DNA of 64,000 nucleotides from Streptococcus oralis (GTDB lineage: Bacteria; Bacillota; Bacilli; Lactobacillales; Streptococcaceae). Where the stretch lies: positions 821,001 through 885,000 of the forward strand of contig NZ_CP065707.1 of the NCBI RefSeq assembly GCF_016028255.1, in the 5' to 3' direction. This document shows, piece by piece, positions 7,466 to 35,764 of this stretch. Numbering within the stretch: the stretch's first letter is position 1; each line of letters opens with the position of its first letter. Made by a program: the position numbers and the translations under genes. The notes beneath the pieces were generated by a model. The model was not told the DNA's origin. It worked only from the letters and a program-made list of their open reading frames with translations, and did no database searches.

Positions 7466-7505
7466 CTTGCATCCTTTCGTGAAATGATGATTTTTAGTCT
7501 GTTCT

Positions 7506-7514: not shown

Positions 7515-7558
7515 TATTTTCCGATAAATAAGGGAGCCGAACTGAAAAGAAATAGAAA

Positions 7559-7587: not shown

Positions 7588-7668
7588 AGTTAAACTAAAA
7601 GAAAAATTGAGTGAGACTAGAGATTAATGTAGGAAGAATTCCTCGAAAGATGAGTTAGGATAGAAAAT

Positions 7669-8362: not shown

Positions 8363-8387
8363 TTTACCTTTTTCATCGGATGAGCAA

Positions 8388-8416
8388 TTGAAAAACTCCC
8401 CAAAATCCGATATAAT
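8388..8416 (+). promoter_or_regulatory. Promoter of prfC
   Basis: TTGAAA at 8388-8393 and TATAAT at 8411-8416 with a 17-bp spacer; the prfC ATG follows 92 bases downstream. Confidence 0.85.
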
Positions 8417-8507
8417 GGAGAGTTGAAAGGAATGGTAAAATCCAATGTAAAAATCATTCTTAGCTATATGAAACAACCAAAAATAGAGAATCAAAGAAAG
8501 AGAACTT

Positions 8508-10052
8508 ATGACTATTCAAGAAGAAATCAAGAAACGCCGTACCTTTGCCATTATTTCCCACCCGGACGCCGGGAAAACAACCATCACTGAGCAGTTGCTC
8601 TACTTCGGGGGCGAGATTCGTGAGGCTGGTACCGTAAAAGGTAAGAAAACAGGGACTTTTGCCAAGTCTGACTGGATGGATATTGAGAAACAACGTGGGA
8701 TTTCGGTAACCTCATCTGTTATGCAGTTTGACTACGACGGAAAACGCGTCAACATCCTAGATACACCAGGGCACGAGGACTTCTCAGAAGACACCTATCG
8801 GACCTTGATGGCGGTGGATGCTGCTGTCATGGTCGTGGACTCTGCCAAGGGTATCGAGACCCAAACTAAAAAATTGTTTGAGGTTGTGAAACACCGTGGT
8901 ATTCCCGTCTTTACCTTTATGAACAAGCTGGACCGTGACGGTCGTGAACCGCTAGACCTCTTGCAAGAACTAGAAGAAGTCCTAGGTATTGCTAGCTACC
9001 CAATGAACTGGCCAATCGGGATGGGGAAAGCCTTTGAAGGCTTGTATGACCTCTATAACCAACGTTTAGAACTTTATAAAGGAGATGAACGTTTTGCCAG
9101 TTTGGAAGAAGGTGACAAACTCTTTGGAAGTAACCCATTTTATGAGCAAGTAAAAGAGGATATCGAACTCCTGAATGAAGCAGGAAATGAGTTTTCAGAA
9201 GAAGCCATTCTCGCAGGTGATTTGACTCCGGTCTTCTTCGGATCAGCCCTGACTAACTTTGGGGTACAGACCTTCCTTGAAACTTTTTTGAAATTTGCTC
9301 CAGAGCCACATGGACACAAGAAAACAGATGGCGAAATTGTCGATCCTTACGACAAGGATTTCTCAGGGTTTGTCTTTAAAATCCAAGCTAACATGGATCC
9401 TCGTCATCGTGACCGTATCGCCTTTGTCCGCATCGTATCAGGTGAATTTGAGCGTGGAATGAGTGTCAACCTGCCTCGTACTGGGAAGAGTGCCAAACTG
9501 TCGAATGTCACTCAGTTTATGGCGGAAAGTCGTGAGAATGTGACCAATGCCGTGGCAGGTGATATTATCGGGGTTTACGATACAGGGACTTATCAGGTTG
9601 GAGACACTTTGACGGTTGGAAAAAACAAGTTTGAGTTTGAACCACTGCCAACCTTTACACCTGAGATTTTCATGAAAGTTTCTGCTAAGAACGTCATGAA
9701 ACAAAAATCCTTCCACAAGGGAATCGAGCAATTGGTGCAAGAAGGAGCCATTCAGCTTTATAAGAATTACCAAACAGGCGAGTACATGCTAGGCGCTGTT
9801 GGTCAACTCCAGTTTGAAGTCTTTAAGCACCGCATGGAAGGCGAGTACAATGCAGAAGTGGTCATGAGCCCAATGGGTAAAAAGACAGTTCGCTGGATTA
9901 AGCCTGAGGACTTAGACGAGCGCATGTCATCAAGCCGCAATATCTTGGCCAAAGACCGTTTTGACCAACCAGTATTCCTTTTTGAAAACGACTTTGCCCT
10001 TCGCTGGTTTGCGGATAAATATCCAGATGTAGAGTTGGAAGAGAAGATGTGA
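8508..10052 (+). CDS. prfC: Peptide chain release factor 3
   Basis: 514 residues, the usual RF3 length. Translational GTPase domain with G1 [10 protein letters not shown]2 region around [12 protein letters not shown]3 [16 protein letters not shown] and G4 NKLD. RF3 is a ribosome-bound GTPase that removes RF1/RF2 after peptide release. Monocistronic: it has its own promoter and ends before a repeat-rich intergenic region. It is separated from EF-G and TetM relatives by the RF3-specific N-terminus ([18 protein letters not shown]). Confidence 0.97.
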
Positions 10053-10343: not shown

Positions 10344-10390
10344 AAAAACCTCAGAGAAATCATGTTACATGAATTCTTCTGAGGTTTTTC
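10344..10390. terminator. Bidirectional terminator between prfC and the FUSC gene
   Basis: AAAAACCTCAGA (10344-10355) pairs with TCTGAGGTTTTT (10378-10389). An inner partly paired segment includes CATG/CATG. T tracts on both strands suit the convergent genes. Confidence 0.85.
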
Positions 10391-11343
10391 TAGTTTCCAT
10401 ATTTCTGATAAAAATCGACCTTGACCTGAATGAAGGTTTCGGCTTCGCGTAGTAGCTGCAGGAGGGTGGCACGGGTCTCAAACTCCTCACGTGTTTTCGG
10501 GAGACTCCGATTGCGGAAGACTTGCAGATAACGTTCGATGTCATCGAGTAGGTCGTGAGCAGGATTGGTCTGGCTTAGCTGGGTAGCAATCTTAGAAAAG
10601 AGCTGGGCCAAGATCAAACTTTCACTTGCGGCTAGGTGACAAGTATTGATCTGCTGGGCCATATTTCGCAGGATACGACTTTGTCGCTGTCTCATCTCAA
10701 AGTAGTGGATATGGTAGTCCGTCTGGTGAAAGAGGTGATCCGAGTGGTCCAGATAGACCAGTTTGAGGGCTTCATCGAGGAGTTCATCTAATTCGTCAAC
10801 GAGTTGGGCGCGATTGCGCCCGTCTCCTCTTGACAGATAGTATTTAAAGCGAAGCAGGATATCTTTTAACTTTTCTTCGACCTGAAGGTGGTAGTTTTGG
10901 ATGGTTTTCTCACGAGAGGGCATATAAAGGTTGACCAATAGAGCAAAGCTTGTCCCGATGAGAAAGAGGAGTATCTCATTAAGCAAGAGCTCTGGAGAGG
11001 TAGACTCCTGCATCAAGAGATGGCCGACCAAGACACTGCTAGGGGTGATGCCAATTTCCCAACCCATTTTATAGGCTAAAGGAACGTAGAGAGCCAGATA
11101 GAGGCCGAGACTCCAGATGTGAAAGCCTGTCAGTCGAAAGGCTAGAACACCGATAGCGAGTGCTAGGAGCATAGAAAAGAGGCGGTTACGGGCTAATTTT
11201 AGCGTGCTTCTGCGCGTGTCAGATAGGCTTAAGAGGGCGATAATTCCAGCTGAAACTGCTGATGATAAGTCTAAAAAATAAGCGAGAAAACAAGCGAGGC
11301 AGGTCGCTAAGATCAGTTTTGTCGTACGTTGGGTGATAGACAT
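10390..11343 (-). CDS. FUSC / aromatic acid exporter family membrane protein
   Basis: 317 residues. The N-terminal half (about 1-140) has several membrane helices starting ILATCLACFLAYFLDL, with the SLSDTRRSTLKLARNRL segment typical of the ArAE/FUSC family. The C-terminal half is soluble and helical, matching the ArAE C-terminal domain. Homologues are proposed efflux proteins for aromatic acids, but the substrate here is unknown. The stop abuts the shared terminator. It is transcribed in the same direction as sstT, 67 bases downstream, and could be read through from the sstT promoter. Confidence 0.82.
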   Translation of the reverse strand: MSITQRTTKLILATCLACFLAYFLDLSSAVSAGIIALLSLSDTRRSTLKLARNRLFSMLLALAIGVLAFRLTGFHIWSLGLYLALYVPLAYKMGWEIGITPSSVLVGHLLMQESTSPELLLNEILLFLIGTSFALLVNLYMPSREKTIQNYHLQVEEKLKDILLRFKYYLSRGDGRNRAQLVDELDELLDEALKLVYLDHSDHLFHQTDYHIHYFEMRQRQSRILRNMAQQINTCHLAASESLILAQLFSKIATQLSQTNPAHDLLDDIERYLQVFRNRSLPKTREEFETRATLLQLLREAETFIQVKVDFYQKYGN

Positions 11344-11410
11344 GAGAATTTCCTATAATACTAGAATGAGAGTATAAAAGACAAGGCTTGGAAGACTTGT
11401 CTTAAAAAAT

Positions 11411-12616
11411 CTATTTTTTACGGGCAGACGCGTACTCAGCAACTGCTGTAAAGAGGACGTCGGTAGAAGAGTTCAGGGCAGTTTCGCAGGAGTCTTGGAT
11501 GACACCGATGACAAAACCAACTCCGACTACCTGCATAGCAACGTCATTTGAAATTCCAAATAGACTACAAGCGACGGGAATGAGGAGGAGTGATCCACCA
11601 GCAATTCCAGAGGCTCCGCAGGCAGAAATGGCAGCGACGACACTGAGCACAAAGGCTGTACCAAAGTCGACAGAGATTCCCAGAGTATTGACTGCAGCTA
11701 GAGTGAGAATGTTAATGGTTACGGCTGCGCCAGCCATGTTGATAGTGGAGCCAAGGGGAATAGAAACAGAATAGGTATCTGGATTGAGTCCGAGATCTTG
11801 GCAGAGTTTCATGTTTACAGGAATATTAGCAGCAGAACTACGAGTAAAGAAAGCTGTAATCCCACTGACACGTAAACATTTAAAAACAAGGGGGTAAGGA
11901 TTTTTTCTCATAAAGAGAAAGGCAATGAGGGGATTGATGACAAGGGCCACAAAAGCCATAGTTGCAATCAAGAGTCCTAGCAAAATTCCGTAGTTAGCAA
12001 GGCTGGAAATTCCTTTATCAGAGATGGTCTTGAAGACCAAACCCATAATTCCGAAAGGAGCCAAATTGATAATCCACTCCACAATCTTGGAAGTTACATC
12101 AGCCATGGTTTTGAGCAATTCCTTGCTGTTTTTGCTAGCTTCTCTCATAGCAAGTCCAAAGACAACAGCCCAGGATAGGATTCCAATATAGTTGGCTTTG
12201 ACGATGGCATTGAGGGGATTGTCCACGAGATTCAGCAGGAGGTTGCTGAGAACTTGACCGATGCCGTCTGGTGGGGCAATCTCTGTGCTCGCACTGCTGA
12301 GAGTAATCTGGACGGGGAAGAGAAAACTAGCCAGTACAGCAATCAAGGCAGCTGCAAAGGTACCGAGTAGATAGAGAAAAATAACGGTCTTCATATTGGT
12401 ATCTTGCCCTTTTTGATGTTGTGAGAGGGCATTTGCGACGAGGGTAAAGACCAAGACAGGAGCGATGGCTTTCAGACCCCCAACGAATAGGTCACCGAGA
12501 ATGCCGAGCCCCGACAGACTAGGAAAAAGTAGCCCTAGAGAGGCTCCAAGAAGCATGCCGATTAGGATACGTTTGATGAGGCTGGCCTTGTTCCAGGCTC
12601 GAATGATTTTTTTCAT
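11411..12616 (-). CDS. sstT: Serine/threonine:sodium symporter SstT
   Basis: 401 residues from the ATG at 12616, which has AAGGAG nine bases upstream; an in-frame TTG five codons earlier is not used. Dicarboxylate/amino acid:cation symporter family with about eight membrane helices and the re-entrant loop motifs ([39 protein letters not shown]). SstT takes up serine and threonine with sodium. It has a good promoter overlapping the region divergent from the mscS-like gene. Confidence 0.93.
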
Positions 12617-12646
12617 AATAGTCTCCTTCAAAATGTATTGTTTATG

Positions 12647-19023: not shown

Positions 19024-20136
19024 ATGATCATCACAGGTATTATCGCGGAGTTCAATCCTTTTCATAATGGCCACAAATACCTGCTGGATCAGGCTGAAGG
19101 GCTGAAAATTGTTGCCATGTCTGGGAACTTCATGCAAAGAGGAGAGCCTGCTATCGTGGACAAATGGACACGGGCCCAGATGGCGCTTGAAAATGGAGCA
19201 GATCTGGTAGTGGAGTTGCCCTTTTTAGTCAGTGTTCAGGCGGCGGATTTCTTTGGTCAAGGGGCTGTGGATATCTTAGCACAGTTGGGTATTGATAGCC
19301 TCGCTTTTGGGACAGAAGAAGTTTTAGATTATCAAAAAATCGCTGACTTATACACAGAGCAAGGTAGAGAGATGGAGAATTTTGTGGAAAATTTGCCTGA
19401 TTCTCTCTCCTATCCTCAGAAAACCCAAGCCATGTGGAAGGAATTTGCTGGTCTTGATTTTTCAGGCAATACCCCCAATCATGTTCTGGCTTTGGCCTAT
19501 GCTAAGGCGGTTGCGGGACGTAGAATCAAACTCCATCCGCTTCAGCGTCAGGGGGCTGACTATCACTCTGTGGACAAGGATGTGGAATTTGCTTCGGCTA
19601 CAGCCCTCCGTCAGCATCAATCAGACCAAGATTTTTTAGAACGCTTTATGCCTTCTGTGGAGCTTTTTGAAAATGCTAGTAAAGTGAGCTGGGAAGATTA
19701 TTTTCAACTCTTACGCTATCAAATCTTGTCAAATCCAGATCTAACCACCATCTATCAGGTCAATCAAGAAATGGCTGTGCGCATCAAGGATGCTATCAAA
19801 ACAGCCCAGTCTTTGGAAGAATTGGTCGAGGCGGTTGCGACCAAGCGTTATACCAAGGCGCGTGTTAGACGCCTCTTGACCTATATCTTGGTGCAATCCA
19901 GAGAAAGTGACTTGCCAGAAGGCCTCCATGTCCTTGGCTTTACCGAAAAAGGCAGACAACATCTCAAGTCTCTGAAAGGGCAGATCCATCTAGTCAGCCG
20001 AATTGGCAAAGAACCTTGGGATGCTATGACTCAAAAGGCAGACCAGATTTACCGACTAGGACACCCAAGTATAGCAGAGCAGAATTTTGGTCGAGTGCCG
20101 ATTAGAATGGAAATAAGTGGAAACTGTAGTGGGTGA
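19024..20136 (+). CDS. tmcAL: tRNA(Met) cytidine acetate ligase
   Basis: 370 residues of the YlbM/TmcAL family, with the N-terminal nucleotidyltransferase motif [12 protein letters not shown] and the later [12 protein letters not shown] segment. TmcAL uses acetate and ATP to make N4-acetylcytidine at the wobble base of elongator tRNA(Met). The last codons (NCSG) lie in a sequence that is partly repeated downstream of the giant adhesin gene, so the 3' end may have been altered by the insertion. Confidence 0.92.
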
Positions 20137-20204
20137 CATATAACGAAGCATAGAGGGAATCAGACTGGTTCTCTCTTTTGTCATGTTTAAAGCTATGAAA
20201 ATTC
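20133..20204 (+). repeat. Left flanking copy of an imperfect direct repeat around the adhesin gene
   Basis: GTGACATATAACGAAGCAT, the hairpin with TTCTCTCTTTT, then AAAGCTATGAAAATT matches in the same order and orientation the sequence at 33560-33632 (GTGACATCTAACTAAGCAT ...). Similarity extends to the preceding ACTGT. The pair brackets the adhesin locus and may mark its insertion. Confidence 0.55.
20152..20180 (+). terminator. Terminator after tmcAL
   Basis: AGAGGGAA pairs with TTCTCTCT (one G-U) around a 9-base loop, followed by TTTT. A diverged copy of the same hairpin lies at 33580-33610. Confidence 0.7.
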
Positions 20205-20764
20205 TGGTTTTGACATTGTCAAAGTTCTAACAATCAAAGGCATTTCGTTTAATGACTATGATAAGGTTGATAGTGGCTTCCCGTTTTGTATGAGAACAGG
20301 GTGTTCCAAAGCGTTAATAATCTTGTCCTCATCTGTATCTTTCGAAAACGTCTGAAAAACGATTAAAAGTATGGAATTTACAAAAGAAATGATCTCTTCT
20401 AATGATGGTTTAGTCATTTTTATTGGAAGTATTAATGGGCTTGATTTCGAAAATCGTAAGAGAATTTCAATAGTTTGAACTTTAAAAGCGAATTTTAGGT
20501 AAAAATTAGGCGTTTTCATTGGTCATTTCGAGTATAAATGCTTGAAAAGGAGGAGCCTTTTTGGTAGAATGATAAATGGTATATACTAGATAAAAGCAAC
20601 TGGTATATCCCAGATGGAATCTGCTTTTTCTGAGTCAAAGGGATAAAAACTGAGACTGACTGCGGCTTTTATTGGCTTTGGTTTTTAGAGGGCAGCGCAA
20701 CTACGCTTTGTTAATGATCATGAGGTTAACAAAGGGTCGCATTTGGATAAAAGAAAGGAATCAA
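20205..20764. other. Intergenic region and leader before the adhesin gene
   Basis: 560 bases without a convincing gene. It includes decayed-looking coding sequence (for example a 35-codon frame at 20371-20478), a short hairpin AAAAGG/CCTTTTT at about 20545-20561, a possible -10 TATACT at 20582-20587, and a stem CTTTGTTAA/TTAACAAAG at 20706-20734 in the probable 5' leader of the adhesin mRNA. No intact mobile element is recognised. Confidence 0.5.
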
Positions 20765-23700
20765 ATGTTTCGAAGTAAAAAATTTAACAAAGATTTCGAG
20801 ATCGTAGATGAGAAAAAGCGTTACAAGCTTTACAAGTCGGGTAAAAACTGGGTAAAAGCCTCGAACTCTCAATTGGATCTCTTCCGTATCGGTGGGATGG
20901 GCGAAGTTGTCTCTAGTACCCTGTCAGACACTGAAGAACTTGATCACGCACACCTTAGTTTTAACACGCTAGCGGGTATAGGGGGAATCCTGGCCGCGGG
21001 AGCTGCAGGATTTGTGATGACTCAAGAGCAAACTGTTTATGCGGATGAAACATCTGAGTATGCAGAAAAGGATAAAACAGTCATCGCTGCTGAACCGAAA
21101 GCAGCTGAAACAACTGAAACAAGTACTAACTCAATCATTGCTCAAGCGCAAGCAGAAGTAAAGAAAGCTCAAGCAGAACAAACATCTGCAACAGCAGCCT
21201 CTGTATCAGTCAGTCAATCTGTTGAGGCTCAAGCGAGTGCGAGTCAGTCAGCTTCAGTCAGTCAATCTACCTCAGCAAGTCAGTCAGTTTCAGCAAGTCA
21301 GTCAGCATCTGCAAGTGCTTCAACATCAGCAGGTCAGTCAACTGCTCCAGCATCTGAGTCAGCGAGTCAATTAACATCAGCTCCTGTATCAGCCTCAGCA
21401 AGTGCAAAAGCATCTGCCTCAGCAAGCTCTACACCATCAGAGTCAGCGAGCGCTCAAGCGCCTGCATCTGTAGTTGAGAGTACATCAGCTGTTAGCGAAC
21501 CATCAGCGCAGGCTTCTGTGTCTACCTCAGCTTCTGCATCGCTCAACCATAAGGTCAACCCTGCGGCAAGTCTTGTATCAGGCAGTGCTAACCAAAGTTT
21601 GGTAAGTGCAGCTCTTAGCACAAGTCAAGCAACAACAACAAGCAATAATATCGCAGCTGGTGTTGTAGCGGATAAGAACCAAGCCCAAGGTAAGGATACA
21701 ACCAAGCAAGCTGAGAAAGACCAAGCAGCAGATAAGCAAGTAACTACTGCACCAAAAGAAGGTTACTCAGGTTTCCGTCAAGCAGGAAATCTAAACCGAC
21801 AAGGAAATATCACTTATTCGCGCGGTGCTACAATCATAAGTGGACCAGGACATGTTACAGTTGAACCAGGTCAAAGAATTGATTACTCAGTAGTGATTGA
21901 AGGGGCACCTATCCATCCGCAGTACTTAGCACTGGTAACCAATGATATGAGACCTACTCATGCATTGGGGATAACGACTACGTTTACGCAATCTGGGCCT
22001 AATAGGGTTATAGCTCGTATTACTGGTACTGTCCAAACGCCTGGACCGAATGCGAAAACTAAGCTTCCGTTTTACCTTGCTCGTAGAGAATACGGTTCTG
22101 TTGGGGATTATCAACCTTTGAGAAACTTTAGCCTGAACATCAGTGATGCTGGTAGCAAGTCTACTTCAACAAGTAAGCAACAGTCACTATCAAACAGTGC
22201 TTCAGCGAGTGCCTCACTTAGTGCATATCAATCCCACTCAGCAAGCGCGAGCCAGTCTGCGTCAATTAGTGCGAGCCAAAGCGCATCAGCATCAGTATCA
22301 GCAAGCATCAGTGCGAGCCAATCAGCATCAAGCTCAGCAAATGCAAGCCAAAGTGCATCAGCAAGTGCCAGCCAGTCTGCTTCTGTATCAGCTAGCCAAT
22401 CAGCCAGTGCATCGCTTAGTGCAAGTCGTTCAGCCTCAGCGAGCGTAAGCTCAAGCCGTTCAGCGAGTGCATCAGCAAGTGCGAGTCGCTCAGCCTCAGC
22501 ATCTGTAAGTTCAAGCCGTTCAGCAAGTGCTTCAGCCAGCGCATCGCTTAGCGCAAGTCGCTCAGCATCAGCTTCTGCAAGTTCAAGCCGTTCAGCGAGT
22601 GCATCAGCCAGCGCATCGCTTAGCGCAAGTCGCTCAGCTTCAGCAAGTGTAAGCTCAAGTCGTTCGGCAAGTGCTTCAGCGAGTGCATCGCTTAGTGCAA
22701 GTCGTTCAGCTTCAGCAAGTGTAAGCTCAAGCCGTTCAGCGAGTGCATCAGCTAGTGCGAGTCGCTCAGCCTCAGCAAGTGTAAGCTCAAGCCGTTCGGC
22801 AAGTGCTTCAGCAAGCGCGAGCCATTCTGCGTCTGTATCAGCAAGCCAAAGCGCTTCAGCATCAGTAAGTGCTAGTCAATCAGCATCAGTATCAGCTAGC
22901 CAATCAGCTTCAGCGTCTGTATCTGCAAGTCAAAGTACTTCAGCGTCAGTATCTGCAAGCCAAAGTGCCTCAGCTTCAGCATCTAACAACCAGAACTCAG
23001 CTTCTATCTCAGCAAGCGCGAGCCAGTCTGCGTCTGTATCAGCAAGCCAAAGTGCTTCAGCATCAGTAAGTGCTAGTCAATCAGCATCAGTATCAGCTAG
23101 CCAATCAACTAGCGCATCAGTATCTGCAAGTCAATCAACTTCAGCATCTGTATCAGCTAGTCAAAGTGCTTCAGCTTCAGCATCTAACAACCAGAACTCA
23201 GCTTCTATCTCAGCAAGCGCGAGCCACTCTGCGTCTGTATCAGCAAGCCAAAGCGCTTCAGCATCAGTAAGTGCTAGTCAATCAGCATCTGTATCAGCTA
23301 GCCAATCAGCTTCAGCGTCTGTATCTGCAAGTCAAAGTACTTCAGCGTCAGTATCTGCAAGCCAAAGTGCTTCAGCATCAGTAAGTGCTAGTCAATCAGC
23401 ATCAGTATCAGCTAGCCAATCAACTAGCGCATCAGTATCTGCAAGTCAATCAACTTCAGCATCTGTATCAGCTAGTCAAAGTGCTTCAGCTTCAGCATCT
23501 AACAACCAGAACTCAGCTTCTATCTCAGCAAGCGCGAGCCAGTCTGCGTCAATTAGTGCAAGCCAAAGCGCTTCAGCATCAGTAAGTGCAAGCATCAGTG
23601 CAAGCCAATTAGCATCAAGCTCAGCAAGTGCGAGCCAAAGTGTCTCAGCAAGTGCAAGCGTAAGTGCTTCAGTGAGCGCAAGCCAAAGTGCTTCAGCATC

Positions 23701-26700
23701 AGTAAGTGCAAGTCACTCAGCATCTGTATCAGCAAGCCAATCAGCAAGCGCATCAGAATCAGCTAGTCAAAGTGCTTCAACATCAGTAAGTGCTAGCCAA
23801 AGTGCCTCAGCTTCAGCATCTAACAACCAGAACTCAGCTTCTATCTCAGCAAGCGCGAGCCACTCTGCGTCTGTATCAGCAAGCCAAAGCGCTTCAGCAT
23901 CAGTAAGTGCTAGTCAATCAGCATCAGTATCAGCTAGCCAATCAGCTTCAGCGTCTGTATCAGCAAGTCAAAGTACTTCAGCATCAGTAAGTGCTAGCCA
24001 AAGTGCCTCAGCTTCAGCATCTAACAACCAGAACTCAGCTTCTATCTCAGCAAGCGCGAGCCACTCTGCGTCTGTATCAGCAAGCCAAAGCGCTTCAGCA
24101 TCAGTAAGTGCTAGTCAATCAGCATCAGTATCAGCTAGCCAATCAGCTTCAGCGTCTGTATCAGCAAGTCAAAGTACTTCAGCATCAGTAAGTGCTAGCC
24201 AAAGTGCCTCAGCTTCAGCATCTAACAACCAGAACTCAGCTTCTATCTCAGCAAGCGCGAGCCACTCTGCGTCTGTATCAGCAAGCCAAAGCGCTTCAGC
24301 ATCAGTAAGTGCTAGTCAATCAGCATCAGTATCAGCTAGCCAATCAGCTTCAGCGTCTGTATCAGCAAGTCAAAGTACTTCAGCATCAGTATCTGCAAGC
24401 CAAAGTGCCTCAGCTTCAGCATCTAACAACCAGAACTCAGCTTCTATCTCAGCAAGCGCGAGCCACTCTGCGTCTGTATCAGCAAGCCAAAGCGCTTCAG
24501 CATCAGTAAGTGCTAGTCAATCAGCATCAGTATCAGCTAGCCAATCAGCTTCAGCGTCTGTATCAGCAAGTCAAAGTACTTCAGCATCAGTATCTGCAAG
24601 CCAAAGTGCCTCAGCTTCAGCATCTAACAACCAGAACTCAGCTTCTATCTCAGCAAGCGCGAGCCACTCTGCGTCTGTATCAGCAAGCCAAAGCGCTTCA
24701 GCATCAGTAAGTGCTAGTCAATCAGCATCAGTATCAGCTAGCCAATCAGCTTCAGCGTCTGTATCAGCAAGTCAAAGTACTTCAGCATCAGTAAGTGCTA
24801 GCCAAAGTGCCTCAGCTTCAGCATCTAACAACCAGAACTCAGCTTCTATCTCAGCAAGCGCGAGCCACTCTGCGTCTGTATCAGCAAGCCAAAGCGCTTC
24901 AGCATCAGTAAGTGCTAGTCAATCAGCATCAGTATCAGCTAGCCAATCAGCTTCAGCGTCTGTATCAGCAAGTCAAAATACTTCAGCATCAGTATCTGCA
25001 AGCCAATCAGCTTCAGCTTCAGCATCTAACAACCAGAACTCAGCTTCTATCTCAGCAAGCGCGAGCCACTCTGCGTCTGTATCAGCAAGCCAAAGCGCTT
25101 CAGCATCAGTAAGTGCAAGTCAATCCGCTTCTGTATCAGCTAGCCAATCAGCAAGCGCATCAGAGTCAGCTAGTCAAAGTGCTTCAACATCAGTATCTGC
25201 AAGCCAATCAGCTTCAGCATCAGCATCTAACAACCAGAACTCAGCTTCTATCTCAGCAAGCGCGAGCCACTCTGCGTCAATTAGTGCGAGCCAAAGCGCT
25301 TCAGCATCAGTAAGTGCTAGTCAATCAGCATCAGTATCAGCTAGCCAATCAGCTTCAGCGTCTGTATCAGCAAGTCAAAGTACTTCAGCATCAGTATCTG
25401 CAAGCCAAAGTGCCTCAGCTTCAGCATCTAACAACCAGAACTCAGCTTCTATCTCAGCAAGCGCGAGCCACTCTGCGTCTGTATCAGCAAGCCAAAGCGC
25501 TTCAGCATCAGTAAGTGCTAGTCAATCAGCATCAGTATCAGCTAGCCAATCAGCTTCAGCGTCTGTATCAGCAAGTCAAAGTACTTCAGCATCAGTAAGT
25601 GCTAGCCAAAGTGCCTCAGCTTCAGCATCTAACAACCAGAACTCAGCTTCTATCTCAGCAAGCGCGAGCCACTCTGCGTCTGTATCAGCAAGCCAAAGCG
25701 CTTCAGCATCAGTAAGTGCTAGTCAATCAGCATCAGTATCAGCTAGCCAATCAGCTTCAGCGTCTGTATCAGCAAGTCAAAGTACTTCAGCATCAGTATC
25801 TGCAAGTCAATCAACTAGCGCATCAGTATCTGCAAGTGAATCAGCTTCAGCATCAGTATCTGCAAGTGAATCAGCTTCAGCATCTGTATCAGCTAGCCAA
25901 TCAGCAAGCGCATCAGTAAGCTCAAGTCAATCAACTTCAGCGTCTGTATCAGCTAGCCAATCAGCAAGCGCATCAGTATCTGCAAGTGAATCAGCTTCAG
26001 CATCTGTAAGTGCAAGCCAATCAGCTTCAGCGTCTGTAAGCTCAAGTCAATCAGCTTCAGCTTCTGTATCAGCAAGCCAAAGTGCTTCAGCATCAGTATC
26101 TGCAAGCCAATCAGCAAGCGCATCAGTAAGCTCAAGTCAATCAACTTCAGCGTCTGTATCAGCTAGCCAATCAGCAAGCGCATCAGTATCTGCAAGTGAA
26201 TCAGCTTCAGCATCTGTATCAGCTAGCCAATCAACTAGCGCATCAGTAAGCTCAAGTCAATCAGCTTCAGCATCAGTATCTGCAAGTCAATCAGCTTCAG
26301 CATCAGTATCTGCAAGCCAATCAACTAGCGCATCAGTAAGCTCAAGTGAATCAGCTTCAGCATCTGTATCAGCTAGCCAATCAACTAGCGCATCAGTATC
26401 TGCAAGTCAATCAACTTCAGCATCAGTATCTGCAAGTGAATCAGCTTCAGCATCAGTATCTGCAAGTGAATCAGCTTCAGCATCTGTATCAGCTAGCCAA
26501 TCAGCAAGCGCATCAGTAAGCTCAAGTCAATCAGCTTCAGCATCAGTATCTGCAAGTGAATCAGCTTCAGCATCTGTATCAGCTAGCCAATCAGCAAGCT
26601 CAAGTCAATCAACTAGCGCATCAGTATCTGCAAGTGAATCAGCTTCAGCATCAGTAAGCTCAAGTCAATCAGCTTCAGCATCTGTATCAGCAAGCCAATC

Positions 26701-29700
26701 AGCTTCAGCATCTGTATCAGCTAGCCAATCAACTAGCGCATCAGTATCTGCAAGTGAATCAGCTTCAGCATCAGTATCTGCAAGTCAATCAGCTTCAGCA
26801 TCTGTATCAGCTAGTCAATCAGCTTCAGCATCAGTATCTGCAAGCCAATCAGCTTCAGCATCTGTATCAGCTAGTCAATCAGCTTCAGCATCTGTAAGTG
26901 CAAGCCAATCAGCTTCAGCGTCTGTAAGCTCAAGTCAATCAGCTTCAGCTTCTGTATCAGCAAGCCAAAGTGCTTCAGCATCAGTATCTGCAAGCCAATC
27001 AGCAAGCGCATCAGTAAGCTCAAGTCAATCAACTTCAGCGTCTGTATCAGCTAGCCAATCAGCAAGCGCATCAGTATCTGCAAGTGAATCAGCTTCAGCA
27101 TCTGTATCAGCTAGCCAATCAACTAGCGCATCAGTAAGCTCAAGTCAATCAGCTTCAGCATCAGTATCTGCAAGCCAAAGTGCCTCAGCTTCAGCATCTA
27201 ACAACCAGAACTCAGCTTCTATCTCAGCAAGCGCGAGCCACTCTGCGTCTGTATCAGCAAGCCAAAGCGCTTCAGCATCAGTAAGTGCTAGTCAATCAGC
27301 ATCAGTATCAGCTAGCCAATCAGCTTCAGCATCAGTATCTGCAAGCCAATCAGCTTCAGCGTCTGTAAGTGCAAGCCAATCAGTTTCAGCATCTGTATCA
27401 GCAAGCCAATCAGCATCAGCATCAGTAAGCTCAAGTGAATCAGCATCAGCATCAGTATCAGCTAGCCAATCAGCTTCAGCGTCTGTATCAGCAAGCCAAT
27501 CAGCTTCAGCATCAGTATCTGCAAGCCAAAGCACTTCAGCATCAGTAAGCTCAAGCCAATCAGCTTCAGCATCTGTATCAGCTAGCCAATCAACTAGCGC
27601 ATCAGTATCTGCAAGCCAATCAACTTCAGCGTCTGTAAGTGCAAGTCAATCAGCTTCAGCGTCTGTAAGTGCTAGCCAATCAGCTTCAGCATCTGTATCA
27701 GCTAGTCAATCAGCTAGCGCATCAGTATCTGCAAGCCAATCAGCTAGCGCATCAGTATCTGCAAGCCAATCAGCTAGCGCATCAGTAAGTGCAAGTCAAT
27801 CAGCAAGCGCATCAGTATCTGCAAGTGAATCAGCTAGCGCATCAGTAAGTGCAAGTCAATCAGCTTCAGCATCAGTAAGCTCAAGCCAATCAGCTTCAGC
27901 ATCAGTATCTGCAAGCCAATCAGCTTCAGCTTCTGTAAGCTCAAGCCAATCAACTTCAGCATCAGTAAGCTCAAGCCAATCAGCTTCAGCATCAGCATCA
28001 GTAAGCTCAAGCCAATCAGCTTCAGCTTCTGTAAGCTCAAGCCAATCAGTTTCAGCATCTGTATCAGCAAGCCAATCAGCTAGCGCATCTGTATCAGCAA
28101 GTCAATCAGCTTCAGCATCTGTATCAGCAAGCCAATCAGCTTCAGCATCAGTAAGCTCAAGCCAATCAGCTTCAGCATCAGTAAGCTCAAGCCAATCAGC
28201 TAGCGCATCTGTATCAGCAAGTCAATCAGCTTCAGCATCTGTATCTGCAAGCCAATCAGCTTCAGCATCTGTAAGTGCTAGCCAATCAGCTTCAGCATCT
28301 GTATCAGCTAGTCAATCAGCTAGCGCATCAGTATCTGCAAGCCAATCAGCTAGCGCATCAGTATCTGCAAGCCAATCAGCTAGCGCATCAGTAAGTGCAA
28401 GTCAATCAGCAAGCGCATCAGTATCTGCAAGTGAATCAGCTAGCGCATCAGTAAGTGCAAGTCAATCAGCTTCAGCATCAGTATCTGCAAGCCAATCAGC
28501 TTCAGCGTCTGTAAGTGCAAGCCAATCAGCAAGCGCATCAGTAAGCTCAAGTCAATCAACTTCAGCATCAGTAAGCTCAAGCCAATCAGCTTCAGCATCA
28601 GTATCTGCAAGCCAATCAGCTTCAGCTTCTGTAAGCTCAAGCCAATCAGTTTCAGCATCTGTATCAGCAAGTCAATCAGCTAGCGCATCAGTATCTGCAA
28701 GCCAATCAGCTTCAGCGTCTGTATCTGCAAGTGAATCAGCTTCAGCTTCTGTATCAGCTAGCCAATCAACTTCAGCATCAGTAAGCTCAAGCCAATCAGC
28801 ATCAGCATCAGTAAGCTCAAGTGAATCAGCATCAGCATCAGTATCAGCTAGCCAATCAGCTTCAGCGTCTGTATCAGCAAGCCAATCAGCTTCAGCATCA
28901 GTATCTGCAAGCCAAAGCACTTCAGCATCAGTAAGCTCAAGCCAATCAGCTTCAGCATCTGTATCAGCTAGCCAATCAACTAGCGCATCAGTATCTGCAA
29001 GCCAATCAACTTCAGCGTCTGTAAGTGCAAGTCAATCAGCTTCAGCATCTGTATCAGCAAGTCAATCAGCTAGCGCATCAGTATCTGCAAGCCAATCAGC
29101 TTCAGCGTCTGTAAGTGCAAGCCAATCAGCAAGCACATCAGTATCTGCAAGTCAATCAGCTTCAGCATCTGTATCAGCTAGTCAATCAGCTAGCGCATCA
29201 GTATCTGCAAGCCAATCAGCTTCAGCATCAGTAAGCTCAAGTCAATCAACTTCAGCATCTGTATCAGCTAGTCAATCAGCTAGCGCATCAGTAAGCTCAA
29301 GTCAATCAACTTCAGCATCTGTATCAGCTAGTCAATCAGCTAGCGCATCAGTATCTGCAAGCCAATCAGCTTCAGCGTCTGTAAGTGCAAGCCAATCAAC
29401 TAGCGCATCAGTATCTGCAAGCCAATCAGCTTCAGCGTCTGTAAGTGCGAGCCACTCATCAAGCACAAGCATGAGCAACAGCGTATCCGAATCAATCAGT
29501 GCTAGCCAATCAGTAAGCACAAGCATGAGCAACAGCGTATCCGAATCAATCAGTGCTAGCCAATCAGTAAGCACAAGTTTGAGCAACAGCGTATCAGCGT
29601 CAATCAGTACAAGCCAATCAGTAAGCACAAGCTTGAGCAACAGCGTGTCAGCATCAATCAGTGCATCTGAATCAGCAAGCACAAGCTTGAGCAACAGCGT

Positions 29701-32700
29701 GTCTGCCTCAATCAGTGCAAGCCAATCAGCAAGCACAAGCTTGAGCAACAGCGTGTCTGCTTCAATTAGTGCTTCAGTATCAGCAAGCACAAGCTTGAGT
29801 AACAGCGTGTCTGCATCAATCAGTGCTTCAGTATCAGCAAGCACAAGCTTGAGCAACAGCGTGTCTGCATCAATCAGTGCGAGCCAATCAGCAAGCACAA
29901 GCTTGAGTAACAGCGTATCTGCTTCAATCAGTGCGAGCCACTCAGCAAGCACAAGCATGAGCAACAGCGTGTCTGCTTCAATCAGTGCGAGCCACTCAGC
30001 AAGCACAAGCTTGAGCAACAGCGTGTCTGCTTCAATCAGTGCGAGCCACTCAGCAAGCACAAGCATGAGCAACAGCGTGTCTGCATCAATTAGTGCATCT
30101 GAATCAGCAAGCACAAGCTTGAGCAACAGCGTGTCTGCTTCAATCAGTGCGAGCCACTCAGCAAGCACAAGCTTGAGCAACAGCGTGTCTGCTTCAATTA
30201 GTGCATCTGAATCAGCAAGCACAAGCTTGAGCAACAGCGTGTCTGCTTCAATCAGTGCGAGCCACTCAGCAAGCACAAGCATGAGCAACAGCGTGTCTGC
30301 TTCAATTAGTGCATCTGAATCAGCAAGCACAAGCTTGAGCAACAGCGTATCTGCTTCAATTAGTGCATCTGAATCAGCAAGCACAAGCTTGAGCAACAGC
30401 GTATCTGCTTCAATTAGTGCATCTGAATCAGCAAGCACAAGCTTGAGCAACAGCGTATCAGCGTCAATCAGTGCGAGTCAATCAGCAAGTACAAGTTTGA
30501 GCAACAGCGTGTCAGCGTCAATCAGTGCTAGCCAATCAGCAAGCACAAGCATGAGCAACAGCGTGTCTGCATCAATTAGTGCATCTGAATCAGCAAGCAC
30601 AAGCTTGAGCAACAGCGTGTCTGCTTCAATCAGTGCGAGCCACTCAGCAAGCACAAGCTTGAGCAACAGCGTGTCTGCTTCAATTAGTGCATCTGAATCA
30701 GCAAGCACAAGCTTGAGCAACAGCGTATCTGCTTCAATTAGTGCATCTGAATCAGCAAGCACAAGCTTGAGCAACAGCGTATCAGCGTCAATCAGTGCGA
30801 GTCAATCAGCAAGTACAAGCTTGAGCAACAGCGTGTCAGCGTCAATCAGTGCTAGCCAATCAGCAAGCACAAGCATGAGCAACAGCGTATCTGCCTCAAT
30901 CAGTGCTAGCCAATCAGCAAGCACAAGCATGAGCAACAGCGTATCTGCCTCAATCAGTGCCAGCCAATCAGCAAGCACAAGCTTGAGCAACAGCGTATCA
31001 GCTTCAATCAGTGCCAGCCAATCAGCAAGCACAAGCTTGAGCAACAGCGTATCAGCGTCAATCAGTGCGAGTCAATCAGCAAGCACAAGCTTGAGCAACA
31101 GCGTGTCAGCGTCAATCAGTGCGAGTCAATCAGCAAGCACAAGCTTGAGCAACAGCGTATCAGCTTCAATCAGTGCGAGTCAATCAGCAAGCACAAGCTT
31201 GAGCAACAGCGTGTCAGCGTCAATCAGTGCGAGTCAATCAGCAAGCACAAGCTTGAGCAACAGCGTATCAGCGTCAATCAGTGCTTCAGTATCAGCAAGC
31301 ACAAGCATGAGCAACAGCGTATCTGCTTCAATTAGTGCTAGCCACTCAGCAAGCACAAGCTTGAGCAACAGCGTATCAGCTTCAATCAGTGCTAGCCAAT
31401 CAGTAAGCACAAGCTTGAGCAACAGCGTGTCAGCGTCAATTAGTGCATCTGAATCAGCAAGCACAAGCTTGAGCAACAGCGTATCTGCTTCAATCAGTGC
31501 TAGCCAATCAGTAAGCACAAGCTTGAGCAACAGCGTGTCAGCGTCAATTAGTGCATCTGAATCAGCAAGCACAAGCTTGAGTAACAGCGTATCTGCTTCA
31601 ATTAGTGCTTCAGTATCAGCAAGCACAAGCTTGAGCAACAGCGTATCAGCTTCAATCAGTGCCAGCCAATCAGCAAGCACAAGCTTGAGCAACAGCGTAT
31701 CAGCGTCAATCAGTGCGAGTCAATCAGCAAGCACAAGCTTGAGCAACAGCGTGTCAGCGTCAATCAGTGCGAGTCAATCAGCAAGCACAAGCTTGAGCAA
31801 CAGCGTATCAGCGTCAATCAGTGCTTCAGTATCAGCAAGCACAAGCATGAGCAACAGCGTATCTGCTTCAATTAGTGCTAGCCACTCAGCAAGCACAAGC
31901 TTGAGCAACAGCGTATCAGCCTCAATCAGTGCGAGCCAATCAGTAAGCACAAGCTTGAGCAACAGCGTGTCAGCTTCAATCAGTGCGAGCCAATCAGTAA
32001 GCACAAGCTTGAGCAACAGCGTATCAGCCTCAATCAGTGCGAGCCAATCAGTAAGCACAAGCTTGAGCAACAGCGTGTCAGCTTCAATCAGTGCATCTGA
32101 ATCAGCAAGCACAAGCTTGAGTAACAGCGTGTCAGCTTCAATTAGTGCGAGCCAATCAACAAGCACAAGCATGAGCAACAGCGTGTCAGCTTCAATCAGT
32201 GCTAGCCAATCAGCAAGCACAAGCTTGAGCAACAGCGTATCTGCTTCAATTAGTGCTAGCCAATCAGCAAGCACAAGCTTGAGCAACAGCGTATCTGCCT
32301 CAATCAGTGCATCTGAATCAGCAAGCACAAGCTTGAGCAACAGTGTATCTGCTTCAATCAGTGCATCTGAATCAGCAAGCACAAGCTTGAGCAACAGCGT
32401 GTCTGCTTCAATCAGTGCATCTGAATCAGCAAGCAACAACTCAAGTAGTACTTCAGTTTCAACAAGTACTTCAGTAAGCTTGAGTAACAGCGTAAGCACA
32501 TCTACATCACTTAGCAATAGCGTTTCAAGTAGTTTGAGTACAAGTGCGTCACAACAATCTAACTCATTCAGCTATAGTAAGGGTGATCCAACAAGCGAAT
32601 CTAAGCCAGAGTTTAACCTTCCTAGCTACCTTGAATCTGTAAGTGCAAGTGAATCAGTTTCACTCAGCAAATCAGTAAGTGTGTCATTGAGCGATAGTAC

Positions 32701-33448
32701 TTCAGCATCAATCAGCGCAAGTGAGTCAGTCTCAACAAGCACAAGCTTGAGTGACAGCATTTCAGCCTCAATCAGTGCAAGCAACAACTCAGGTAGCGGT
32801 TCAGGTTCAACAAGCACAAGCAATGGCTCAGCTAGTCAATCAGCTAGCGCATCAGTATCTGCAAGTCAAAGCACTTCAGCGTCTGTATCAGCTAGCCAAT
32901 CAGCTTCAGCTTCAATCAGTGCAAGCAACAACTCAGGTAGCGGTTCAGGTTCAACAAGCACAAGCAATGGCTCAGCTAGTCAATCAGCTAGCGCATCAGT
33001 ATCTGCAAGTCAAAGCACTTCAGCATCTGTATCAGCAAGCCAATCAGCTTCTGCTTCAATCAGCGCAAGCAACAACTCAGGTAGTGGTTCAGGTTCAACA
33101 AGTACAAGCAATGGTTCAGGCAATGCCTCAACTTCAGCAAGCTTGAGCAACAGTGTATCTGCTTCAATCAGTGCATCTGAATCAGCAAGCACAAGCTTGA
33201 GCAACAGCGCAAGTACCTCAGCTAGCTTGTCTGACAGTGCTTCAATCTCAAGTGCATTGAACCACTCACAAGCTCCTGCACAACAACCTGCTGGACCAGG
33301 ACGTTCAAACGGTAGAAAACTTCCAAATACAGGAACTGCAAGTAACCAATTTGCTGGTCTTGGATTAGGAGTAGCTGCCTTGGCAACTGCCTCTCTTCTT
33401 GGCAAGAAGAAGAAATCAGCAGCTTCTGAAATGGATTTAGAAGACTAA
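20765..33448 (+). CDS. Giant serine-rich-repeat cell-wall adhesin (accessory-Sec substrate)
   Basis: 4,227 residues from the ATG at 20765, which has GAAAGGA upstream; the frame is open 31 codons earlier but without a start site. Residues 21-29 match KxYKxGKxW exactly (KLYKSGKNW), the accessory-Sec signal type, with a hydrophobic glycine-rich core at about 69-85 and likely cleavage after VYA at 93. A first Ser-rich region (about 140-260) is followed by a non-repeat region (about 260-462) that may be the ligand-binding part. A Ser repeat region of about 3,450 residues follows, then LPNTG at 4186-4190, a membrane helix and a KKKK tail for sortase. Such proteins are O-glycosylated and exported by SecA2/SecY2. 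None of those genes is in this window, so they must act from elsewhere. The repeats are of four periods (see separate entries). Confidence 0.93.
22400..22825 (+). repeat. Arg-containing Ser repeat block (SRSAS type)
   Basis: Units of the form [19 protein letters not shown], with Arg instead of Gln at the variable position. They alternate SLSASRS and SVSSSRS versions. The block forms the start of the long repeat region and is the only part rich in Arg. Confidence 0.8.
22826..25835 (+). repeat. 201-bp (67-residue) higher-order tandem repeat
   Basis: Each unit ends [14 protein letters not shown]. The AACAAC of the NNQN junction recurs at 23822, 24023, 24224, 24425, 24626, 24827, 25028, 25229, 25430 and 25631, exactly 201 bases each time. 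Earlier junctions at 22985, 23186 and 23501 have spacings of 201, 315 and 321, so the left part is irregular. Units are nearly identical, pointing to recent unequal exchange. One extra junction lies far outside the array at 27200. Confidence 0.95.
25836..29460 (+). repeat. 30-bp (10-residue) Ser repeat region with large duplications
   Basis: Units of ten residues, [10 protein letters not shown] with variants ending in E, or with SVSSS in place of SVSAS. Larger blocks are duplicated: the stretch starting at 27665 recurs at 28271 (offset 606 bp), and the stretch at about 27292-27534 resembles 28672-28920. Confidence 0.9.
29462..32431 (+). repeat. 54-bp (18-residue) tandem repeat, about 55 copies
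   Basis: The unit [18 protein letters not shown] repeats without breaks. The length divides into almost exactly 55 units. Position 4 varies L/M and position 16 varies Q/E/H/V. The array is distinct from the upstream 30-bp units and ends at [10 protein letters not shown]. Confidence 0.93.
32783..33110 (+). repeat. 144-bp tandem repeat near the adhesin C-terminus
   Basis: [19 protein letters not shown] starts at 32783, 32927 and 33071, spaced 144 bases. The first two units are complete and carry SASVSASQ segments resembling the 30-bp region; the third is partial. The Gly-rich stretches may be flexible spacers near the wall anchor. Confidence 0.85.
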
Positions 33449-33502
33449 GTCCCAAAAATCGACTAAAATGAAATTGTTGATATCATTTTAGCGATGAAAA
33501 CA

Positions 33503-33538
33503 AGAACCCCAGATGGCCTAAGGCTATCTGGGGTTTTT
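33503..33538 (+). terminator. Terminator after the adhesin gene
   Basis: AACCCCAGAT pairs with ATCTGGGGTT around a partly paired GGCCTAAGGCT loop, followed by five T. Strong rho-independent terminator. Confidence 0.9.
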
Positions 33539-33559
33539 GGATCTTTGTCAACTGTGGAG

Positions 33560-33632
33560 AGTGACATCTAACTAAGCATGAGAGAGAGTCAGATTGATTC
33601 TCTCTTTTCTAATATTCAAAGTAACGAGAATT
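33560..33632 (+). repeat. Right flanking copy of the direct repeat around the adhesin gene
   Basis: GTGACATCTAACTAAGCAT, a hairpin ending ATTCTCTCTTTT, then CAAAGTAACGAGAATT correspond to 20133-20204. It is preceded by CTTTGTCAACTGTGG, which recalls the ends of ISL3-family insertion sequences from memory; no transposase is seen. Confidence 0.55.
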
Positions 33633-34073
33633 ATCACTCTAAATTTTTGAAAATCAAATACTAGATATCTTATATTCTTGCTGATTGCTTTTAACTAATG
33701 GCGAAGTTCACCAGAACAAGTCAACGTCTGGCTGTCAATCTCACAAGGTGCTAAAGTTTCTCTGAAAGTTTGAGGATAAAAGGCTTTATTATAGCGCGAC
33801 TGAGATGTTGGAATATGTGAAATTTATTCAGTATAATTTTGGTATTTTGAAGTAGTGTGACGATAGGGATCTGGCTGTTGAATCTGTCTACAGTGAACCG
33901 CTTTCGCTTGTTCCTGAACTTTCTCTAAGCCATTTGTAGAAGTAGTATTTGGTGGGTGATTGCTCTTTTTTGCTTCGTTTTTCGTGGAAATTTAAATTTT
34001 TAAAGAATCTTTATTTTGCTTTGAAATCTAAGGAATTTCTTCAAAAATTCACACAAAACTCTTCAATTTGGGT
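33633..34073. other. AT-rich intergenic region with no recognised gene
   Basis: About 440 bases between the right flanking repeat and the rny promoter. No frame with a credible start and ribosome site was found. The sequence looks like decayed accessory DNA, but I cannot identify its origin. Confidence 0.4.
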
Positions 34074-34150: not shown

Positions 34151-35764
34151 ATGGAAATCATGACTATTGCGATTGTTGTTTTTGCCGTCATCATTGGTTT
34201 AGTCATTGGATATGTCAGCATCTCAGCTAAGATGAAATCATCTCAAGAGGCTGCAGAGTTGATGCTTCTAAATGCTGAACAAGAAGCAACTAATTTACGA
34301 GGACAAGCTGAGCGCGAAGCGGATTTATTGCTAAATGAAGCTAAGAGCGAAAGCAAGTCTCTTAAAAAAGAAGCACTATTGGAGGCCAAAGAGGAAGCCA
34401 GAAAATACCGTGAAGAAGTGGACGCTGAATTTAAGTCAGAACGTCAGGAACTCAAGCAAATCGAAAGTCGTTTGACGGAGAGAGCTGCGAGCCTTGACCG
34501 CAAAGACGACAATTTGACGAACAAAGAAAAAACACTTGAACAAAAAGAACAAAGTATTTCTGATAGAGCAAAAAACCTTGATGCACGTGAAGAGCAATTA
34601 GAGGAAGTCGAAAGACAAAAAGAAGCTGAACTTGAACGTATCGGTTCCCTTTCCCAAACTGAGGCTCGAGATATTATCTTGGCTCAGACAGAGGAAAACT
34701 TGACCAAGGAAATTGCTAGCCGCATTCGTGAGGCTGAGCAAGAGGTGAAGGAACGTTCAGACAAGATTGCGAAAGATATCTTGGTTCAGGCTATGCAGCG
34801 TATCGCTGGTGAGTATGTAGCAGAGTCAACAAACTCGACAGTTCACCTACCAGATGATACTATGAAGGGACGCATTATCGGTCGTGAAGGACGCAATATT
34901 CGTACCTTTGAAAGTTTGACAGGGGTAGATGTCATCATCGACGATACGCCAGAAGTGGTAACCTTGTCAGGATTTGATCCGATTCGTCGTGAAATTGCTC
35001 GTATGACCATGGAAATGTTGCTCAAGGATGGCCGTATCCACCCAGCTCGTATCGAGGAGTTGGTGGAGAAAAACCGTCAGGAGATTGACAATAAAATCCG
35101 TGAATATGGGGAGGCTGCTGCTTATGAGATTGGTGCGCCAAACCTCCATCCAGACTTGATGAAGATTATGGGACGTTTGCAGTTCCGTACTTCATATGGA
35201 CAAAATGTCTTGCGTCATTCGATTGAGGTTGCTAAGTTATCTGGTATCATCGCGAGTGAACTTGGTGAAAATGCAGCTCTTGCCCGTCGTGCTGGATTCC
35301 TTCATGACATCGGAAAAGCTATTGACCGCGAGGTTGAAGGTAGCCACGTTGAGATTGGTACGGAGTTGGCTCGTAAGTACAAGGAACACCCAGTTGTGGT
35401 CAATACGATTGCTAGCCACCACGGTGATGTGGAAGCAGAAAGCGTCATCGCAGTGATCGTTGCAGCAGCAGATGCCTTGAGTGCAGCGCGTCCAGGTGCT
35501 CGTAGCGAGTCTCTTGAAAGCTATATCAAGCGTCTCCATGATTTGGAAGAAATCGCCAATGGCTTTGAAGGGGTGCAAAATAGCTTTGCCCTTCAAGCAG
35601 GACGTGAAATCCGTATCATGGTTAATCCAGGACAAATCAAAGACGACAAAGTCACAATCTTGGCTCACAAAGTTCGTGAGAAAATTGAAAACAATCTCGA
35701 TTATCCAGGAAATATCAAGGTAACCGTGATTCGCGAACTTCGTGCAGTAGATTATGCTAAATAA
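34151..35764 (+). CDS. rny: Ribonuclease Y
   Basis: 537 residues. An N-terminal membrane anchor (about 5-24), a long charged coiled coil (about 30-210), a KH domain with [10 protein letters not shown] and an HD domain with [11 protein letters not shown]. RNase Y starts mRNA decay at the membrane in firmicutes. The start [10 protein letters not shown] follows GAGG. Single gene: it has its own promoter and a terminator hairpin just after the stop. Confidence 0.97.

What the first reader, a model, noticed from the sequence alone, without database searches (positions are those of the whole stretch)
20765..33448. Orphan 4,227-residue SRR adhesin without its export and glycosylation genes
The KxYKxGKxW signal predicts dependence on SecA2/SecY2 and Gtf glycosyltransferases, which normally sit next to such genes. 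Here both neighbours (tmcAL, rny) are housekeeping genes. The strain may have a second SRR locus whose machinery serves both, or may use another export route.
Basis: partly seen in the sequence, partly recalled or inferred. Interest (0 to 1): 0.7.

Follow-up and report, generated by a model that had tools for sequence, protein, structure and literature searches.

The report
Streptococcal adhesin with remote export machinery
A giant gene with the layout of a serine-rich surface adhesin sits alone between two housekeeping genes, but the same chromosome carries one set of dedicated export and glycosylation genes about a million bases away that likely serves it; sharing of one such set by several adhesins is already described in other oral streptococci.

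Summary
In detail: window 20765-33448 encodes an intact 4,227-aa SRR protein (KxYKxGKxW signal, non-repeat head, two Ser repeat arrays, LPNTG) between tmcAL and rny. The rest of the genome solves the puzzle: one accessory Sec locus with secY2, asp1-3, secA2, gtfA and gtfB lies ~1 Mb away, with a second SRR gene whose first 115 aa are 99% identical but whose frame is broken in its head. Several SRR adhesins sharing one system is known (S. salivarius, S. oralis subsp. dentisani). Beyond that: (1) the gene is a self-contained, moved copy of the home gene; relatives carry other heads at this same site, and two head types occur both here and at the home site, so heads have swapped between sites; (2) in three relatives SRR signals were found only at a remote site; (3) the locus holds three extra genes (Ser-rich signal-less protein, truncated GH1, DivIVA-like coil). 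The Ser-rich gene was found in 17 of 284 Streptococcus genomes; named carriers are S. oralis, S. cristatus and Streptococcus sp. Tufts or asymmetric fibrils are reported for S. cristatus and S. oralis subsp. dentisani; a role of these genes in fibril placement is untested.

The parts
20443..20764 (+). 5' module shared with the home SRR gene (322 bp upstream of the ATG)
   Evidence: blastn 92-93% identity to the region upstream of the home SRR in the same genome; the alignment begins at -322
20542..20570 (+). predicted promoter (TTGAAA-17-TAGAAT, extended -10) inside the shared 5' module
   Evidence: consensus scan, 10 of 12 matches; 3 sites found vs 2.0 expected in the region, so weak
20707..20733 (+). 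leader hairpin (10-bp stem) upstream of the start codon
   Evidence: sequence, identical in the home gene's leader; RNA fold of the leader z = -1.93, 7 of 200 shuffles as good
20765..33448 (+). SRR adhesin gene, 4,227 aa, intact frame
20807..20917 (+). KxYKxGKxW-type signal region
   Evidence: PF19258 at G000:C1:841807-841917, 41.5 bits vs cut-off 23.6
21746..22189 (+). predicted binding region (head type D)
   Evidence: non-Ser-rich stretch between Ser-rich regions (core 21587-22165); 35-36% identical to head type C in relatives; no Pfam domain at E<1e-3; no PDB sequence relative at E<=1
23678..25810 (+). 201-bp repeat array, 10.6 copies, inside the first long Ser repeat region (22400-29458)
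   Evidence: TRF
29444..32435 (+). second long Ser repeat region, 54-bp unit, 55.4 copies
   Evidence: TRF
33320..33448 (+). LPNTG sortase signal, hydrophobic stretch, charged tail
   Evidence: sequence
33449..33690 (+). 3' module shared with the home SRR gene (242 bp after the stop)
   Evidence: blastn 97-98% over alignments that include the last 150-300 coding bases and end 242 bp after the stop
33501..33539 (+). intrinsic terminator-like hairpin (18 pairs) inside the shared 3' module
   Evidence: scan: 2 sites (one per strand) vs 0.3 expected
19024..20136 (+). tmcAL, upstream neighbour; terminator-like hairpin at 20152-20176
   Evidence: PF05636; scan
34151..35764 (+). rny, downstream neighbour
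   Evidence: RNase Y N, KH, HD domains

Best explanation
This 4,227-residue protein has the full layout of a serine-rich repeat adhesin and is predicted to be glycosylated and exported by the single accessory Sec locus found about 1 Mb away on the same chromosome. The gene is a dispersed copy of the SRR gene at that locus: signal, flanks and tail are near identical, while the head differs (shown). Inferred steps: the preprotein is made from its own promoter, its Ser repeats are glycosylated by GtfA/GtfB, the Asp/SecA2/SecY2 machine moves it across the membrane, sortase anchors LPNTG, and the ~3,700-residue stalk holds a ~150-residue head away from the cell. Because flanks and stalk are shared, recombination likely exchanges heads between sites, so one machine can display changing adhesins. 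In this assembly the home gene's frame is broken in its head, so this gene is likely the main SRR client.
For: Locus: SecA2 (1080 bits), Asp1, Asp2, GtfA, GtfB above cut-off, Asp3 above cut-off. Two KxYKxGKxW genes in the genome; their first 115 aa are 99% identical. Homology between the two in blocks -322 to +635 and +858 to +960, and again from the tail to +242 after the stop, with different heads between. Of 29 SRR signal places in the 17 genomes, 14 follow gtfB and 15 lie elsewhere: 9 after mapZ, 3 after tmcAL, 2 after rsmI, 1 other. In G019, G020 and G025 only a mapZ-site signal was found; in G019 the locus was read and no SRR follows gtfB. Same tmcAL site, three heads: G000 D, G093 B, G114 C; G000 is 94% and 93% identical to the other two from -700 (edge of the comparison) to about +1015. 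Head B at home in WB01_FAA12 and at tmcAL in G093; head C at home in F0407 and G005 and at tmcAL in BCC10. Precedent for several SRRPs per accessory system: passages in PMC7661464, PMC6973325, PMC9247193, PMC5826255.
Against: No expression, glycosylation or secretion data. SecY2 scores just under its curated cut-offs (245.7 vs 249.6; 269.6 vs 353). KxYKxGKxW occurs in genomes with no second SecA found. The sole remote SRR of G020 and G025 shows short open frames (1,034 and 204 aa), and G025 is a draft in which a home copy could be missed, so only G019 (1,546 aa open, by its coordinates running to the contig end) is clean support. The home frame break could be a sequencing error. The promoter-like site is little above chance.
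Confidence: 0.85

Rival explanations
1. The protein uses the housekeeping SecA/SecYEG pathway and is not a client of the accessory system.
For: KxYKxGKxW proteins exist in genomes without a second SecA at E<=1e-250 (G035, G199, G111).
Against: Its signal is 99% identical over 115 aa to that of the SRR gene seated in the accessory locus, and long Ser-rich repeats are the known substrate type of that pathway (passages). In three relatives that have the locus an SRR signal was found only at a remote site.
Confidence: 0.07
2. It is a silent reserve copy: a donor of heads for recombination with the home gene, not expressed itself.
For: Flanks and stalk match the home gene, and heads do move between sites.
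Against: Intact over 4,227 codons with a (weak) promoter-like site and a terminator of its own, whereas the home copy is the broken one. S. oralis subsp. dentisani F0392 is described as decorated with three SRRPs (passage in PMC9247193).
Confidence: 0.08

Closest known systems
The three SRRPs of S. oralis subsp. dentisani F0392 (Ronis 2019, not held; FapC is named in passages of PMC9247193, the names FapA and FapB are recalled)
   Same: Several SRRPs in one genome, asymmetric fibrils (passage, PMC9446765). G093 here has three SRR genes: home (head A), tmcAL (head B), rsmI (head E).
   Different: G000 has two SRR genes, one broken, and its head D was found elsewhere only as relatives of 36-37% identity. 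Which Fap protein matches which site, and whether theirs are remote, could not be checked.
S. salivarius SrpA/SrpB/SrpC (PMC6973325 and PMC5826255, passages)
   Same: Several SRR adhesins depend on one SecA2/SecY2 system.
   Different: There the first glycosylation is by GtfE/F encoded away from the locus; here gtfA-gtfB sit in the locus.
S. cristatus SrpA fibril protein (Handley 2005, not held; cited in PMC9446765 and PMC7661464)
   Same: SRR adhesin of a tufted streptococcus; the S. cristatus loci read here share the layout and the three extra genes.
   Different: The second SRR gene of the nine S. cristatus-like genomes lies after mapZ, not tmcAL, and where typed bears head E.
GspB/Hsa of S. 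gordonii
   Same: Signal, head, Ser stalk, LPXTG; alternative SRRPs between strains (PMC7661464, passage).
   Different: Described as one per strain and associated with the glycosylation island (same passage).

Membership tests
SRR glycoprotein adhesin (SRRP) | KxYKxGKxW-type signal | tested here: met
   PF19258, 41.5 bits in the six-frame search, cut-off 23.6
SRR glycoprotein adhesin (SRRP) | Ser-rich repeat regions on both sides of a non-repeat binding region | tested here: met
SRR glycoprotein adhesin (SRRP) | LPXTG anchor | tested here: met
   LPNTG at 33320
SRR glycoprotein adhesin (SRRP) | Accessory Sec and core glycosyltransferase genes in the genome | tested here: met
   secA2, asp1-3, gtfA, gtfB above cut-off; secY2 slightly below its cut-offs
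SRR glycoprotein adhesin (SRRP) | Gene seated in the accessory Sec/glycosylation locus (typical; not known to me to be required of every SRRP in multi-SRRP strains) | tested here: not met
   ~1 Mb away
SRR glycoprotein adhesin (SRRP) | Glycosylated and SecA2-dependent | not testable with these tools
   needs mutants
SRR adhesin with Siglec-like head | Siglec-like domain (PF20164) | tested here: inconclusive
DivIVA (228-aa product of the accessory locus) | Pfam DivIVA above gathering score | tested here: not met
   23.7 bits vs 28; 25.5 in the genome search. Called DivIVA-like only; long helix predicted at pLDDT above 90 over about 100 residues
GH1 glycosidase (391-aa product of the accessory locus) | Pfam Glyco_hydro_1 above gathering score | tested here: met
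   229.1 bits vs 22.6
GH1 glycosidase (391-aa product of the accessory locus) | Complete catalytic domain | tested here: not met
   Profile covered 59-404 of 453; 6-phospho-beta-glucosidase models below cut-off (352 vs 639); the two Glu taken as catalytic are retained (residue roles recalled), so activity is open

The most novel reading that the evidence does not exclude
The accessory Sec locus that serves this adhesin carries a three-gene fibril-placement device: a DivIVA-like coil that marks one side of the cell, a long acidic Ser-rich cytoplasmic scaffold made by the gene after secA2, and a repurposed GH1 protein. Together they hold SecA2/GtfAB at one place, so every SRR client, home or remote, comes out as a one-sided tuft, the trait behind corncob-forming streptococci.
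Probability: 0.25. Interest if true: 0.8.

Novelty: new member of a known kind. Interest (0 to 1): 0.5.

Why it matters
It shows that an 'orphan' SRR adhesin gene need not be an orphan: one accessory Sec locus can coexist with SRR genes at several chromosomal sites, and related strains change the binding head while keeping signal and stalk. That would make host and partner specificity a cassette choice. The accompanying three-gene insert offers candidate genes for an old question, how S. cristatus and S. oralis subsp. dentisani place fibrils unevenly, testable by single gene deletions.

Tried and rejected

Results against the placement reading: four further genomes (G121, G125, G131, G230) have the DivIVA-like gene at 59-60% identity without the Ser-rich gene; in the two read, G121 and G131, it stands before gtfA-gtfB with no secA2, asp, secY2 or SRR signal in the 12.5-13 kb read. 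In G093, a genome with three SRR genes, the DivIVA-like gene itself reads in two overlapping pieces in different frames, so it may be broken there (or misassembled).

Full report
OBSERVATION. The ORF is real and exactly placed: ATG at 20765, stop at 33448, 4,227 aa, no internal stop. Order: KxYKxGKxW signal, a Ser-rich stretch, a ~150-aa non-repeat head (21746-22189), a long repeat region to about 29458, a second of 54-bp units at 29444-32435, a mixed C-terminal stretch and LPNTG. Ser is 1,932 of 4,227 residues. Neighbours tmcAL and rny are confirmed by Pfam.

THE MACHINERY EXISTS. The window is G000:C1:821001-885000 of a 2.02-Mb single-contig genome. SecA searches give two places, 1,828 kb and 1,895 kb. 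The second lies in one run of co-directional genes: secY2, asp1, asp2, asp3, secA2, a 761-aa Ser-rich protein, a 391-aa GH1-like protein, a 228-aa DivIVA-like protein, gtfA, gtfB, then a second SRR gene. NCBIfam names SecA2, Asp1, Asp2, GtfA, GtfB above cut-off and Asp3 above cut-off; SecY2 is the best match of its gene but slightly below the curated cut-offs. GtfA above cut-off and Asp2 occur once each in the genome. So I found one set, about 1.04 Mb from the window gene one way and, if the contig is a circle, 0.98 Mb the other.

THE HOME SRR GENE. Only two KxYKxGKxW matches exist. The home gene opens with a 344-aa ORF and continues in another frame for 2,589 aa to the edge of one fetched stretch and for 1,433 aa in the next, to a stop after the same LPNTG tail. 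The frame changes inside the head. The same head type (A) reads open at the home site in G093, G116, S. oralis BCC10, Streptococcus sp. Marseille-P6264 and three S. cristatus strains, so intact copies exist; whether the break is real or a sequencing error is unknown.

A MOVED COPY. Home and window genes align in blocks from -322 to +635 (93%) and +858 to +960 (92%), and again 97-98% from the tail to 242 bp after the stop; the heads differ. Inside these modules are a promoter-like site (weak by the scan's own control) and a strong terminator-like hairpin. The gene therefore looks like an independent transcription unit.

SITES. Seventeen genomes that carry the Ser-rich gene of the locus (selected from 284 genus genomes) were searched with the first 115 residues: 29 places. 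By upstream neighbour: gtfB 14, mapZ 9, tmcAL 3 (G000, G093, G114), rsmI 2 (G093, G225), other 1 (G128). The names mapZ and rsmI are my reading of the sequences (recalled); tmcAL and rny are from Pfam. In G019, G020 and G025 only a mapZ-site signal was found; for G019 I read the locus and found gtfB followed by the 75-aa ORF and then a non-SRR gene. The open frames of the G020 and G025 genes are short (1,034 and 204 aa). The tmcAL-rny junction is variable: of 30 genomes searched with the RNase Y N-terminus, the SRR tail precedes rny in 3 (G000, G093, G114); five (G219, G197, G237, G157, G202) show a 166-206 bp gap; four (G112, G100, G109, G200) show 837-953 bp; in the other 18 neither was reached within the stretch held upstream of rny, at most 1.5 kb. 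Of those 18, G005, G116 and G225 were read further and hold other genes between tmcAL and rny.

HEADS. I tried to type 25 SRR loci (three pairs are the same gene held twice: L018/L033, L024/L051, L014/L050, by contig positions): type A in 7, B in 3, C in 4, D in 1, E in 9, and 1 (L021) could not be typed because its frame stops early. B is at home in WB01_FAA12 (= G225) and at tmcAL in G093, 96.8% identical DNA from -296 to +1500. C is at home in F0407 (= G201) and G005 and at tmcAL in BCC10 (= G114), 97.1% identical to F0407 over +504 to +1461. At the tmcAL site G000 is 94% identical to G093 and 93% to G114 from -700 to about +1015, after which the three carry heads D, B and C. Heads thus moved between sites within shared flanks; the direction is not resolved. 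Head D is 35-36% identical to C; a search of 284 genus genomes found 3 besides G000. The S. cristatus copy of head E that I tested (L022) has aRib and GspA/SrpA Siglec-like domains; D has none detected, and its AF2 model is too weak for a fold claim.

HOW IT LIKELY WORKS. By the established SRR pathway (recalled, and in passages of PMC7661464 and PMC6973325): GtfA/GtfB glycosylate the repeats, the Asp proteins and SecA2 deliver the preprotein to SecY2, sortase anchors it. All these steps are inferred here. The signal alone is not proof: G035, G199 and G111 have 9, 13 and 6 signal matches but one SecA each at E<=1e-250. The near identity with the home SRR signal is the stronger argument.

WHAT IS KNOWN. 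A review states that S. salivarius and S. oralis subsp. [quoted passage not shown] also PMC6973325, passages; PMC9247193, passages). I did not see the primary papers. So the adhesin is a new member of a known kind. Among the rows listed by searches (capped lists of 10-20) I noticed no paper on head exchange between dispersed SRR sites or on a DivIVA-like gene in an accessory Sec locus; the library lacks most subscription papers, including Ronis 2019 and Handley 2005.

THE THREE EXTRA GENES. Between secA2 and gtfA lie a Ser-rich acidic protein with no signal or anchor that I could see (737-993 aa in the 6 strains compared, conserved N-terminus aligned, C-terminus conserved by search), a GH1-like protein of 391 aa that keeps both Glu taken as catalytic but lacks the C-terminal part, and a DivIVA-like coil (Pfam 23.7 bits vs 28; long helix) distinct from the cell's DivIVA-family matches at 1,790 kb and 783 kb. 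The Ser-rich C-terminus was found in 17 of 284 genomes, all 17 with the DivIVA-like gene at E<1e-50 (in G093 in two pieces of different frame); 167 of 284 have an accessory SecA2 above cut-off. Named carriers are S. oralis BCC10 and DD16, S. cristatus A52 and A53, and Streptococcus sp. F0407, WB01_FAA12 and Marseille-P6264. PMC9446765 (passages) reports tufts in S. cristatus, asymmetric fibrils in S. oralis subsp. dentisani, and that S. cristatus and the S. mitis/oralis/infantis group make up nearly all streptococci in corncobs. PMC3924036 (passage) reports that Listeria DivIVA is needed for SecA2-dependent translocation. This makes a placement role plausible, but it is a correlation over few lineages, four genomes have the DivIVA-like gene without the Ser-rich gene, and the gene may be broken in G093.

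Noticed in passing
L101 (G131) 3159-6772 and L102 (G121) 6211-9797: DivIVA-like gene followed by gtfA and gtfB (80-88% identical to G000) with no secA2, asp, secY2 or SRR signal in the 12.5-13 kb read: a stand-alone glycosylation pair, perhaps a relic.
   Followed up: partly
tmcAL-rny junction in L094 (G005), L095 (G116), L096 (G225): The junction is a variable cargo site: near-empty in some relatives, unrelated genes in others, SRR genes in three.
   Followed up: partly
L091 (G157), L093 (G202): In these relatives a divergent accessory Sec locus (SecA2 49% identical) sits beside genes equivalent to window 10390-12631, about 9-10 kb upstream of tmcAL.
   Followed up: partly
L004:9298-9525: 75-aa ORF with one hydrophobic, membrane-like stretch between gtfB and the home SRR gene, 68-100% identical in the five other loci where it was found; position would suit an Asp4/Asp5-type part, but no family match.
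   Followed up: partly
L005:5583-12824: 2,413-aa BgaA-like GH2 surface protein with YSIRK signal and LPXTG anchor next to secY2.
   Followed up: no
G181, G182: 15 and 18 KxYKxGKxW signal matches in one genome each.
   Followed up: no
window 20577-20764: Leader of nearly 190 nt with a 10-bp hairpin near the start codon, the hairpin identical in the home gene's leader.
   Followed up: partly
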